From the NCBI RefSeq assembly GCF_020382885.2, contig NC_058506.1:13990318-14054317 (forward strand): a DNA stretch of 64,000 nucleotides, written 5' to 3'. The stretch is from Scatophagus argus (Eukaryota; Chordata; Actinopteri; Scatophagidae). The position numbers and the translations under genes are program-made. Position 1 is the first letter of the stretch; each line of letters starts with the position of its first letter. This document shows, one piece after another, positions 60,331-63,699 of the stretch. Under the pieces are notes generated by a model. That model was given only the letters and a program-made list of their open reading frames with translations. It searched no databases and was not told the origin of the DNA.

Positions 60331-63300
60331 TTAAAGAGCAGCCAAGAGCCTCGAGGAGCCGTCAAGTCCACCACTAGGACGATGTCCCCAGCAACAAAAC
60401 TTCTTTTCCTCTGGTTCCATTTCTGAGAGGTATTGGACCTGTCTCCACCGTCGCTTGACATACAGATCTTGCTTCACAAACAGTCCAGGTGGTACAGCAG
60501 GTTTGCCCTTTAGGAGGAGAATATGATTGGGTGTAAGAGGTTCAAGGTCGTCGTCATCATCATCTTCAGACTCCTCTTTGGCAGCCTTGGCCTTTGTAGG
60601 TGGTTTAGATGGAGCAGCCTTCTTGGGAGGTGGGGCTTCTTCCTCTAAGTCCTCCTCATCATCAGATGACTCCTTTGCAGGCTGAGCTTTCACTGCGGCC
60701 TTGTCAGCAGGTTTAGCGGCAGGCTTGGCTGCTTTCTTTGGTGGGGGAGCCTCCTCTTCAGACTCCTCATCCTCATCATCATCGTCGTCGTCCTCTTCCT
60801 CCAACTCCTCAGCCTTTGCAGGGGCTGCCTTTGCTTTAGCCGGGGTCTTTTTTGGTGGGGGAGCCTCCTCTTCAGACTCCTCCTTGGAATCATCATCATC
60901 TTCTTCATTGAAGTCATGCATGTACTGACTGGTGAGCATTTCCTCCAACTTCCTCACAGAGATCCTGTTCACTGTGGCAGAGGGAAACTCTGTCTCCAAG
61001 GCACCACTGCTTCCATTCAGTGGACCATTAACTACCCATCCCAACACAGTTTTAATAGCGTACGGGCCATTCCCGTGGCTGTTGATGACCTCCCATGGTT
61101 CCAGCAATTTGGGAGCGTTGATTCCTATCAACAAATCAACATTTGCCTTTATGTGTGGGATGTGAACGTCCGACAAGTAAGGCCATTTATCCAGTTCCTC
61201 AGTTGTTACTATATTATTAGTGGTGACTGGCATTTTCCTTTGGCTCAAGACCTCTGGAAGACTATAAAAGTCATTGCCCTCTAATCCAGCCACCTCCAAA
61301 CCAGTGATGGAATAAGATGGAACAACAGTCTCCTGGCCCATTGTGTTCAACAAAACACTGGTTCTTCTGCCTGTAATATTCAGCCTCTGCATTAGATCTT
61401 CAGAGCAGAACGTGGCAGAGCTACCAGGGTCCAGAAATGCATATGTTTGTATGATGTCACATCCTTTTACAGACTTCACTCTTACAGGAAGAATTGGGAG
61501 AACACAGTCATCCTTACCGGCCCCTGTATGCCCACATGTTTGGAAACAAGCTGGTTGTTTACTCAGTGGGCCCTTTAGCTGTTGTGAAGCTGGTTGTTTC
61601 TTTTGCTCTGGAGCAGGTGGTTGTCTACTAATGTGCAGCACAGTGGGATGAGTTTGACCACAGACTTTGCATGTCAAGCGCCTCTCGCATTCCCGACTCA
61701 TGTGACCATCACATAAGCATGCAAAGCAAACTCCCTTTTCCTTCAGAAGTTGAATTTTCTCCTTGTGTCTTTTCTCATTAAACTGTTTACACTCCTCCAA
61801 TGTGTGACTGTATGAACAGCAAAGGCATCCTGCTTTAACTGACTTTCCAAGCTCTGCTGGTGGCTCCTCCTCCCTTTCTGACAGGGTTGTAGATGTTACA
61901 GTGGTGGCAACAATATTTCCTTTCACCCTGTTTCCAGGATAAGACTTAAACTGGGTGACAGTCTTTGTGCCAGCCGCACCAGATACAGGATCTTGGATGT
62001 CACCGAACAGAGGATCAGAAAGGATTTTAACATGACGCTCCACAAATACAACCAAGTCTGCAAAGTGAGCTCTCTGCTGTGTCTGTTCCATGATTCCATA
62101 AGCGATGGATCTCCATTGTTCCCTCAATTTGTATGGCAGCTTTGCAAGAATGGCTCTCATATTTGCAGGCATATCCAACTCTTGCATATACTCCAATTCC
62201 TCCATTACATTACAGCAGCCACGCAGAAACAAAGAATATGCTTGGAGTGCTTTAACATCTTCACCCTTTATGGACTGCCAGGCTAGAACCTTTTTCATAT
62301 AAGCATTAGCAATTTTATATTGATTTCCAAAATGCTCCTGCAGTAGGTCCTTAGCCACTGCATAGCCGCGATCAGGAGCCAAGTGCTGGCAGCTACGTAC
62401 CAGTTGTTGTGGCTGTCCTCTGGTAAATTGCTCCAGATAGAAAAGACAATCTGCTGCTTCTGCTTTATTCTCCACTCCTTGCTCGAATGCTTTAATGAAT
62501 GCTCTGTATTGCAAAGGGTTCCCTTCGAATATGGGAATGTCTCTCGGCGGCAGAGATCTTGCAGTTTGCTGTTGCACCAAAGCAGCTGTTATTTCATTTT
62601 GTCTGTGCATGATGGTAAGTATGTCCTCAGATGCAATTTGATTTATGCAAGGATGAGTGAATTGATGAGTGATTTGGGGTTGACGGATTTCCTTGTTTAA
62701 TTGAGAAGTTGTCATTTGACCTTTAAGTTGGTGTGAATTTCCCATGCTTTTCTGGTGGTCATGCATATTGTAGTGACGTTCAGAATCCGTTTTAAAACTT
62801 GAGCCACGTTCCTTTGGTCGCACATCCAGTGGTTTATTTGGATTTACTGAACACTGTTGTTGCATCGACTTCCACAATCCAGACTGATATTCATTTGCCA
62901 AAGAATTTAACACAACCACAGACCCATTTTTCCCTTTATTTTCCAGGTAAGAGCCCGTTGCATTTTTGGATCCTGAACCAGCACTTCCCACACTAGAGGA
63001 TTGCAATACTGCCAACTTAGCATTTGTTGCAGCTATTTCCACTTCCAAGTCCAGTTGTTCTCGTTTCCTCCTCAGTTGTTGCTCCTGCTCCTCCAATGCG
63101 TGTCTTTCCTTAAGAGCTGAAGCACGGGCAATAAGAGCAGCTCTTTCTGCTTCAGCCTTTATGCGTGCTGAAGCAGTGCTTGATCCTCCACTGGCTCTAC
63201 TTCCTTTACTTGAAGGTTTGCTTTCCACATTAGAAATGCTATCATCTGGGCCAATGTCATCCACCACCAGCCCAGTTGCATGTGCATTGTTTTCACTGCT

Positions 63301-63699
63301 TGTGACATTTTGATTGATACCAACCTCATTGTTTGTAACACCAACATTTTCTTGTATATTACCTTCCAAGTTTGAAACCCACATTTCTGCATCATGAAAA
63401 CATTCATTTAAAGACAGAAATTTTGCTTTAAACCATATTTCATGTTTTTCTTGTTCATCACTTGGCATTAAACCCAACAGCTGTTTATGGATACATTTTG
63501 CATCATCACACACCACCCTTAATTCATTCAAAGCATCACAAACCATTGTTTTATCACCCTTTACGATGAGATCTTTCATTAAGTTTCGTATATTGGCGGC
63601 TTTGTTCAGCTTTGCCTTTCGTTCCGCTTGCAACCTTAAAAGCTTATCAGCAAGCGCCTTTTCAGTCATTATAACTTTTCGTCCGCTTCCGGTTTCCAT
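60331..63699 (-). CDS. BEL/Pao-type Gag-protease polyprotein with nucleolin-like insertion replacing pol
   Basis: Single uninterrupted ORF of 1122 codons. Residues about 1-110: N-terminal gag helices. About 160-235: Ser-rich, then a coiled coil rich in Arg, Glu and Leu. About 380-565: DUF1759 gag domain (DIPIFEGNPLQYRAFIKAF). About 630-690: zinc knuckles, including a perfect CX2CX4HX4C at 658-671. About 740-910: DUF1758 retropepsin with catalytic DPGSS, Asp757. Residues 932-1051: acidic runs alternating with APPPKK and KAKAAPAK blocks, nucleolin-like. From 1052: LEPLTPNHILLLKGKP, the start of DUF5641, normally downstream of integrase. RT, RNase H and integrase core are missing. The last 30 or so residues are frameshifted relative to DUF5641. 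The ATG at 63697-63699 is the first in frame. Such a protein could be packaged with help from an intact relative but cannot transpose alone. Confidence 0.88.
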   Translation of the reverse strand: METGSGRKVIMTEKALADKLLRLQAERKAKLNKAANIRNLMKDLIVKGDKTMVCDALNELRVVCDDAKCIHKQLLGLMPSDEQEKHEIWFKAKFLSLNECFHDAEMWVSNLEGNIQENVGVTNNEVGINQNVTSSENNAHATGLVVDDIGPDDSISNVESKPSSKGSRASGGSSTASARIKAEAERAALIARASALKERHALEEQEQQLRRKREQLDLEVEIAATNAKLAVLQSSSVGSAGSGSKNATGSYLENKGKNGSVVVLNSLANEYQSGLWKSMQQQCSVNPNKPLDVRPKERGSSFKTDSERHYNMHDHQKSMGNSHQLKGQMTTSQLNKEIRQPQITHQFTHPCINQIASEDILTIMHRQNEITAALVQQQTARSLPPRDIPIFEGNPLQYRAFIKAFEQGVENKAEAADCLFYLEQFTRGQPQQLVRSCQHLAPDRGYAVAKDLLQEHFGNQYKIANAYMKKVLAWQSIKGEDVKALQAYSLFLRGCCNVMEELEYMQELDMPANMRAILAKLPYKLREQWRSIAYGIMEQTQQRAHFADLVVFVERHVKILSDPLFGDIQDPVSGAAGTKTVTQFKSYPGNRVKGNIVATTVTSTTLSEREEEPPAELGKSVKAGCLCCSYSHTLEECKQFNEKRHKEKIQLLKEKGVCFACLCDGHMSRECERRLTCKVCGQTHPTVLHISRQPPAPEQKKQPASQQLKGPLSKQPACFQTCGHTGAGKDDCVLPILPVRVKSVKGCDIIQTYAFLDPGSSATFCSEDLMQRLNITGRRTSVLLNTMGQETVVPSYSITGLEVAGLEGNDFYSLPEVLSQRKMPVTTNNIVTTEELDKWPYLSDVHIPHIKANVDLLIGINAPKLLEPWEVINSHGNGPYAIKTVLGWVVNGPLNGSSGALETEFPSATVNRISVRKLEEMLTSQYMHDFNEEDDDDSKEESEEEAPPPKKTPAKAKAAPAKAEELEEEDDDDDDEDEESEEEAPPPKKAAKPAAKPADKAAVKAQPAKESSDDEEDLEEEAPPPKKAAPSKPPTKAKAAKEESEDDDDDDLEPLTPNHILLLKGKPAVPPGLFVKQDLYVKRRWRQVQYLSEMEPEEKKFCCWGHRPSGGLDGSSRLLAAL
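60547..60906 (-). other. Nucleolin-like acidic/basic tract inside the retroelement ORF
   Basis: About 120 codons in frame. Four acidic runs (EEDDDDSKEESEEE, EEEDDDDDDEDEESEEE, SSDDEEDLEEE, EESEDDDDDD) alternate with Lys/Ala/Pro blocks, three of them starting APPPKK. This is the layout of the nucleolin N-terminal region; other acidic nucleolar proteins are possible. It begins right after QYMHDFNE, where BEL reverse transcriptase should start, and ends right before LEPLTPNH. It is continuous, without introns. Confidence 0.75.

What the first reader, a model, noticed from the sequence alone, without database searches (positions are those of the whole stretch)
60331..63699. BEL/Pao retroelement ORF with a nucleolin-like host segment in place of reverse transcriptase and integrase
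Seen: one open 1122-codon frame goes from gag and retropepsin through about 120 residues of alternating acidic and Lys/Pro/Ala blocks into the BEL DUF5641 start. Known: in BEL/Pao elements RT begins just after the VNRISV...QY.HDF motif, and DUF5641 comes after integrase; nucleolin has this acidic/basic N-terminus. Inference: pol was lost and a nucleolin mRNA fragment was captured, probably by template switching during reverse transcription, leaving the frame open. The product would be a Gag-protease with a charged, possibly RNA- or nucleolus-binding tail. Host gene capture by LTR elements is rare in animals and I know of no described BEL case.
Basis: partly seen in the sequence, partly recalled or inferred. 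Interest (0 to 1): 0.85.

Follow-up and report, generated by a model that had tools for sequence, protein, structure and literature searches.

The report
Retroelement carrying nucleolin mRNA piece
A family of LTR retroelements in a vertebrate genome (probably a fish) has lost its reverse transcriptase and integrase, carries a piece of the host's own spliced nucleolin message in their place, and has nevertheless copied itself to several chromosomes, apparently very recently.

Summary
The 1122-codon frame is real. Residues ~932-1051 derive from this genome's nucleolin gene (177/182 bp) and lack two of its introns (699 and 480 bp), so the source was spliced mRNA. An assembly error is very unlikely: the chimera stands at 9 loci on 8 contigs, 8 with perfect 5-bp target-site duplications. 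In 5 of 8 LTR pairs, the window copy's included, the LTRs are identical. All nine share the 3' join and one base differing from the host gene: one capture, then amplification. No reverse transcriptase or integrase was detected in the nine, so movement presumably uses enzymes in trans. The only close remnant of the parental integrase that I found is a broken relic; intact BEL frames of other families are plentiful. Between the window copy and the other eight, the DUF1759-protease part is under purifying selection (dN/dS 0.09-0.28); the first 380 Gag codons are less constrained (0.39-1.53) and DUF5641 shows no significant constraint. A role for the nucleolin tail is unproven; passive filler is more likely. 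Host-mRNA capture by LTR elements is known; my searches showed no BEL/Pao case.

The parts
60331..63699 (-). 1122-aa open frame: Gag + protease-like part + nucleolin-derived segment + start of DUF5641
62107..62529 (-). DUF1759 (BEL Gag region)
   Evidence: Pfam PF03564 E 2e-8, residues 391-531
61267..61440 (-). retropepsin-like segment (sub-threshold)
   Evidence: Pfam PF13650 E 0.0012, below its curated cut-off
60551..60903 (-). captured nucleolin mRNA segment (edges uncertain by a few bases)
   Evidence: 177/182 and 112/132 bases identical to the ncl gene on C6, introns absent
60885..60903 (-). end of the ncl exon that ends at L018:3324 (very short and acidic, assignment less sure)
   Evidence: alignment to spliced host exons
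60765..60884 (-). ncl exon A (L018:4024-4155), with a 15-bp deletion and a 3-bp insertion
60551..60764 (-). ncl exon B (L018:4636-4884) up to about 11 nt before its end, with a 24-bp deletion
60331..60546 (-). remnant of BEL DUF5641, internally deleted in this copy
   Evidence: comparison with the C1 and C9 copies; PF18701 E 8e-29 in C1
60194..60210 (-). polypurine-tract region just before the 3' LTR
   Evidence: sequence; a 24-base pattern over this junction is found at 18 places with up to 2 mismatches
59819..60193 (-). 3' LTR, 375 bp, identical to the 5' LTR outside the window (C14 about 14054492-14054866)
   Evidence: 0 differences of 375; both LTRs found
59814..59818 (-). target-site duplication CTTAA (other copy beyond the window, next to the 5' LTR)
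63700..64000 (-). 5' leader of the element; continues beyond the window to the 5' LTR
   Evidence: a 500-base query from here has 10 matches at 94% or better, two of them partial
59311..59670 (+). two LIMK1 kinase exons beside the insertion (approximate; the next exon lies beyond the element, outside the window)
   Evidence: translation, PDB match LIM domain kinase 1 E 2.9e-55

Best explanation
A BEL/Pao element co-packaged a spliced nucleolin mRNA with its own RNA. During reverse transcription the enzyme switched template twice, replacing everything from the start of reverse transcriptase to the end of integrase with about 390 nt of nucleolin coding sequence (end of one exon, all of the next, nearly all of the third), in frame at both ends. 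The resulting non-autonomous element keeps LTRs, leader, Gag and protease, encodes a Gag-protease-nucleolin-tail protein, and keeps the polypurine tract. It supplies its own Gag and protease and borrows reverse transcriptase and integrase from other BEL elements, and has spread to at least nine places, some very recently. Shown: spliced host origin, shared joins, no detected pol domains, insertions with target-site duplications, identical LTR pairs, purifying selection on the DUF1759-protease part. Inferred: single capture (from the shared join), template switching inside particles, trans supply of enzymes. The nucleolin tail is most likely tolerated filler; a function is possible but not shown.
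For: Donor gene on C6 is nucleolin: acidic exons, RRM_1 over its cut-off in 4 of 4 exon translations tested, Gly-Arg-rich end, PDB nucleolin E 4e-23. The element joins its exons without the 699- and 480-bp introns. Nine chimeric loci; 3' join in 9 of 9, BEL side of the 5' join intact in 7 of 9, shortened in C16 and deleted in C13; GATTCC for the host's GATTCT in 9 of 9. Target-site duplications perfect in 8 of 9. LTR pairs: 0 differences in 5 of 8, K2P 0.016-0.022 in 3 of 8. DUF1759-protease dN/dS 0.09-0.28 for the window copy against the other eight; Fisher P 1e-4 against C11 and C7:21.6 Mb. BEL RT-family domain: 138 matches (some are pieces of one element; 150 of 156 candidates scored), 31 in frames of 1900 aa or more by my count of the table.
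Against: I found no intact autonomous element with these LTRs: the integrase relic on C9 is split by another element, its relatives in the integrase part are at 74% or less, and the two pol-bearing elements fetched that share the polypurine-tract/LTR 24-mer without mismatch have broken frames. So the source of enzymes is unidentified, and the searches list only best candidates. Purifying selection could partly be inherited if copies recombined with unseen autonomous elements; LTR and captured-segment groupings disagree, so recombination between copies is likely. The first 380 Gag codons are weakly constrained (0.39-1.53; P 0.05 and 0.72 in the two pairs tested). Join overlaps are only about four bases and lie in repetitive acidic sequence. 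C13 lacks a target-site duplication.
Confidence: 0.87

Rival explanations
1. The nucleolin-derived tail is functional for the element: it acts as an acidic/basic RNA-, chaperone- or nucleolus-binding extension of Gag and was kept for that.
For: The captured segment is open in 6 of 9 copies (C14, C7:7.3, C11, C8, C1, C13), with indels of 3, 15 and 24 nt and larger in-frame deletions.
Against: Repeat structure makes in-frame deletions likely by chance; lengths differ widely between copies; the frame is broken in C20, C7:21.6 and C16; too few substitutions for a test (C14 v C1: S 4/43, N 4/164). The C7:21.6 copy with a broken tail has identical LTRs, so it moved recently, though the break may be younger than the insertion.
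Confidence: 0.25
2. A nucleolin retrocopy (LINE-type processed pseudogene) landed inside a BEL element, and the chimera then spread.
For: Would also give an intronless segment.
Against: I see no poly(A) or internal target-site duplication at the joins, the piece is internal to the mRNA at both ends, and the RT-to-IN stretch is replaced between BEL homologies. No separate ncl retrocopy is recognisable among the 23 matches (only best candidates are scored there).
Confidence: 0.05
3. Similarity to nucleolin is low-complexity convergence of acidic and Lys/Pro/Ala repeats.
For: Composition is repetitive; other acidic loci match weakly.
Against: 177 of 182 bases identical, including the non-acidic stretches; 307 bits against 61 for the best other acidic locus; exon order kept with introns removed. 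Pfam and PDB searches with the protein segment alone gave nothing, so the case rests on DNA.
Confidence: 0.01
4. Assembly chimera.
For: None found.
Against: Nine loci on eight contigs, eight with their own target-site duplications.
Confidence: 0.01

Closest known systems
Maize Bs1 LTR retrotransposon (passages in PMC7264820 and PMC5408686; further detail recalled)
   Same: LTR element that took up pieces of host genes; recalled as retaining gag and lacking RT
   Different: Plant element, several donor genes; here BEL/Pao in a vertebrate, one nucleolin fragment, at least nine copies
Crocodilian ERV captures of KIT-ligand and nectin3 (PMC4299795, passages and section 15 read)
   Same: Vertebrate LTR retroelements with captured host mRNA, multi-copy
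   Different: Retroviral ERVs; nectin3 replaces env, and KIT-ligand entered without significant loss of coding regions; here the RT-to-integrase stretch is replaced and the host piece is fused in frame to Gag-protease
Acute transforming retroviruses with gag-onc fusions (recalled; RSV, WEHV and HZ4-FeSV are mentioned in PMC4299795 section 15)
   Same: Capture of host mRNA; many are defective, with Gag fused to a host segment and a helper needed (recalled)
   Different: Infectious viruses with growth-promoting genes; here a retroelement with a nucleolin segment of unknown effect
LTR-mediated retroposition in metazoans (Tan et al. 2016, not held; seen through passages of PMC5408686 and PMC8232201)
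   Same: mRNA copied into LTR-flanked cDNA by template switching with microsimilarity, reported in zebrafish among others
   Different: Described there as retrocopies of genes; here the chimera became an amplifying element family whose DUF1759-protease part is under selection
BEL/Pao elements of metazoans (PMC3118150, passages only)
   Same: Gag and protease arrangement, LTRs; DUF1759 and DUF5641 by Pfam here
   Different: No RT, RNase H or integrase detected; host segment in their place

Membership tests
BEL/Pao LTR retroelement (autonomous) | Gag with DUF1759 | tested here: met
   PF03564 E 2e-8 in the window copy
BEL/Pao LTR retroelement (autonomous) | Retropepsin | tested here: inconclusive
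   PF13650 E 0.0012 but below its curated cut-off
BEL/Pao LTR retroelement (autonomous) | RT/RNase H (PF05380) and integrase | tested here: not met
   No such domain in the window ORF. No PF05380 match lies within 3 kb of any of the nine loci (coordinates compared by eye), and the integrase part of the C9 query does not match them, only its DUF5641 part. Eight copies span 3.7-4.8 kb from LTR to LTR; C11, with a truncated 5' LTR, about 3.1 kb
BEL/Pao LTR retroelement (autonomous) | DUF5641 after integrase | tested here: met
   Present in the C1 copy, PF18701 E 8e-29, though without integrase; deleted in part in the window copy
BEL/Pao LTR retroelement (autonomous) | Paired LTRs and short target-site duplication | tested here: met
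   375-bp LTRs in the window copy; 5-bp duplication in 8 of 9
Host-mRNA capture by an LTR element | Host segment lacks introns of the donor gene | tested here: met
   699- and 480-bp introns absent; the second is the stronger case, the first rests on about 20 acidic bases
Host-mRNA capture by an LTR element | Captured piece lies between the LTRs and moves with them | tested here: met
   9 loci, 8 with both LTRs and one with a truncated 5' LTR
Host-mRNA capture by an LTR element | Microhomology at the joins | tested here: inconclusive
   About four bases (ATGA, ACGA) in repetitive sequence; the parental 5' side is inferred from relatives
Non-autonomous LTR element moved in trans | Shares LTR and polypurine-tract ends with a pol-bearing partner | tested here: met
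   24-mer without mismatch at C8:10158302 and C14:5381118, beside PF05380 domains; their frames are broken
Non-autonomous LTR element moved in trans | Movement depends on enzymes from another element | not testable with these tools
   Inferred from lack of pol together with recent copies

The most novel reading that the evidence does not exclude
A selected Gag-nucleolin fusion: the element gained an acidic/basic disordered tail that improves its own packaging or nucleolar trafficking, letting a pol-less BEL element with no close pol-bearing partner found in this assembly outcompete its parent and spread as a parasite of distant BEL elements.
Probability: 0.2. Interest if true: 0.85.

Novelty: new variant of a known kind. 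Interest (0 to 1): 0.62.

Why it matters
It indicates that a BEL/Pao element can take up a host message, lose its polymerase and integrase, and still multiply, apparently in very recent time. It gives a natural case with donor gene, shared joins and both older and very young copies, for asking whether Gag is supplied in cis while enzymes come from other families, and whether a captured host segment helps. Gene annotation may also mistake such copies for nucleolin paralogues.

Tried and rejected
Rejected: low-complexity convergence, assembly chimera, genomic (intron-bearing) capture, processed pseudogene nested in BEL. Looked for an autonomous parent by integrase DNA, LTR and polypurine-tract/LTR pattern: relics and broken relatives only. 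In one search the matches at 97-99% (query 599-786) fall on the LTR of the element nested in the C9 relic, not on integrase; the integrase part has nothing above 73% besides C9 itself. In one search, 40 of 55 candidates were scored and 42 matches listed; LTRs paired within 10 kb in one orientation occur there only at eight chimeric loci, and many of the rest may be solo LTRs (coordinates read by eye). C17:10.98 Mb has a partial second LTR and a large internal deletion. C6:19.82 and 20.64 Mb and C17 are related Gag copies that end before the 5' join and say nothing about capture; they are not counted among the nine. Their dN/dS values (for example 0.56 for C6:19.82 v C17) are. Pfam and PDB searches with the captured segment alone gave nothing. 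No Pfam model matched the RT start in L047. Paper searches showed no BEL or nucleolin capture in the titles and abstract starts listed; most lists were capped at 20 of up to 345 papers, and (BEL Pao) found 0 papers, perhaps because the slash cannot be searched. Tan 2016 is not held.
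Full report
What is there. The window ends inside an LTR retroelement on the minus strand. The open frame at 60331-63699 has 1122 codons. Pfam finds DUF1759 (2e-8) and a weak, sub-threshold retropepsin match. The 3' LTR is at 59819-60193, followed by the duplication CTTAA at 59814-59818; the matching 5' LTR and CTTAA lie just beyond the window on C14, and the two LTRs do not differ at any of 375 sites. 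The element sits antisense in an intron of LIMK1 (PDB LIM domain kinase 1, 2.9e-55); its 5' LTR ends 40 nt from the acceptor of the next kinase exon.

The nucleolin segment. The window's genome (570.7 Mb, 48 contigs) could be searched. A 451-base query across the segment finds a gene on C6 at 97% over 185 bases, 307 bits; the best unrelated acidic locus gives 61 bits. That gene reads as nucleolin: N-terminal acidic exons, RRM_1 over its cut-off in 4 of 4 exon translations tested, a Gly-Arg-rich end, and PDB nucleolin at 4e-23. In the gene the matching parts are three exons, one ending at L018:3324 and two at 4024-4155 and 4636-4884. In the element they are joined without the 699-bp and 480-bp introns. 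The first of the three is represented only by about 20 acidic nucleotides, so the loss of the 480-bp intron is the stronger evidence. The source was spliced RNA.

The joins. The window copy leaves BEL after QYMHDFNE. In L047, which has a PF05380 domain further on, the same point reads QYNHDFSENTREEREM and goes on into RT-like sequence (motifs recognised by eye; Pfam gave no hit); in L041, a shorter BEL derivative, it reads YDFNENVRKEKEM. The element re-enters BEL at DLEPLTPNH; in the C9 relic this is preceded by what I read as the end of integrase (by eye). Overlaps at the joins are about four bases (ATGA, ACGA), which suits template switching but is weak evidence in such repetitive sequence.

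Copies. Nine loci carry the segment: C14 (window), C7:7.29 Mb, C11, C20, C13, C8, C7:21.6 Mb, C1, C16. The 3' join is present in 9 of 9; the BEL side of the 5' join is intact in 7 of 9, shortened in C16 and deleted in C13. Eight of nine have a perfect 5-bp target-site duplication, C13 being the exception; C11 has only 150 bp of its 5' LTR. In the eight LTR pairs, five show 0 differences over 373-376 sites and three show K2P 0.016-0.022. All nine have GATTCC where the host gene has GATTCT, which with the common 3' join points to one capture followed by spread; they differ by later deletions in the captured repeats. LTR groups (C14 with C1, 100%; C7:7.29 with C7:21.6, 99.7%) disagree with captured-segment groups (C14, C7:7.29 and C11 alike; C8 and C7:21.6 alike), which suggests recombination between copies.

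Coding state. Gag-protease is open up to the captured segment in C14, C7:7.29, C8, C7:21.6 and C1, the five with identical LTRs. The captured segment is open in 6 of 9 (C14, C7:7.29, C11, C8, C1, C13) and broken in C20, C7:21.6 and C16. In the DUF1759-protease piece, dN/dS between the window copy and the other eight chimeric copies is 0.09-0.28; Fisher tests for seven of the eight give P from 0.03 to 1e-9 (C13, with 340 of 550 codons, was not tested there). The first 380 codons are less constrained (0.39 to 1.53 against the eight, three of them over 61-218 codons only; P 0.05 and 0.72 in two pairs tested). DUF5641 shows no significant constraint in the three pairs tested (P 0.11 to 1), and it has deletions in several copies. 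The captured segment has too few changes for a test.

How it works, most likely. The element makes Gag and protease, packages its own RNA, and borrows reverse transcriptase and integrase. The BEL RT-family domain has 138 matches in the genome, some being pieces of one element, 31 of them in frames of 1900 aa or more by my count. None that I saw shares close integrase sequence with the C9 relic: the best are at 74% or less, and several of the long-frame elements are listed at 66-68% over some 270 bases. Two fetched pol-bearing elements share the polypurine-tract/LTR 24-mer without mismatch but have broken frames. So the helper is either a more distant BEL element or one absent from, or missed in, this assembly.

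Known or new. Host-mRNA capture by LTR elements is known: maize Bs1 (PMC7264820 and PMC5408686, passages), crocodilian ERVs (PMC4299795, passages and section 15), metazoan LTR-mediated retroposition (Tan 2016, not held, through passages of PMC5408686 and PMC8232201). In the BEL/Pao survey PMC3118150 (search passages only) the terms host gene, nucleolin, non-autonomous and template switch occur 0 times, and its one gene-capture passage is about env genes. The listings of my paper searches (mostly capped at 20) showed no BEL case. I therefore call it a new variant of a known kind. Whether the tail does anything is open.

Noticed in passing
window 59311-60193 and beyond (C14, L009): The element lies antisense in a LIMK1 intron with its 5' LTR 40 nt from the next exon's acceptor, close enough to disturb the branch point; effect on LIMK1 splicing unknown.
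   Followed up: partly
window about 32000-47000: Gly/Pro/Val-coding tandem repeats that look like an elastin gene next to LIMK1 (repeats; gene name and synteny recalled, not tested).
   Followed up: no
L020/L042 (C9:46.3-55.6 kb): Relic of a close BEL relative (integrase end and DUF5641) split by a younger LTR element, Ty3-like by eye, whose LTRs are 99% identical.
   Followed up: partly
L038 and L039 (C6:20.64 and 19.82 Mb): Two Gag copies that both leave BEL at the same point before the capture join and share 5.8 kb at 98.6%, perhaps a segmental duplication; the sequence after the break is unidentified.
   Followed up: partly
L041 (C22:98-102 kb) and L045 (C5:1.96 Mb): Related BEL elements with paired LTRs that keep an integrase-like frame (by eye) but look too short for a full RT: a different kind of internally deleted BEL derivative.
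   Followed up: no
L013 (C13:6.41 Mb): This copy's 3' LTR is followed by about 90 bp that repeat its own 5' leader, and it lacks a target-site duplication, suggesting recombination between elements.
   Followed up: no
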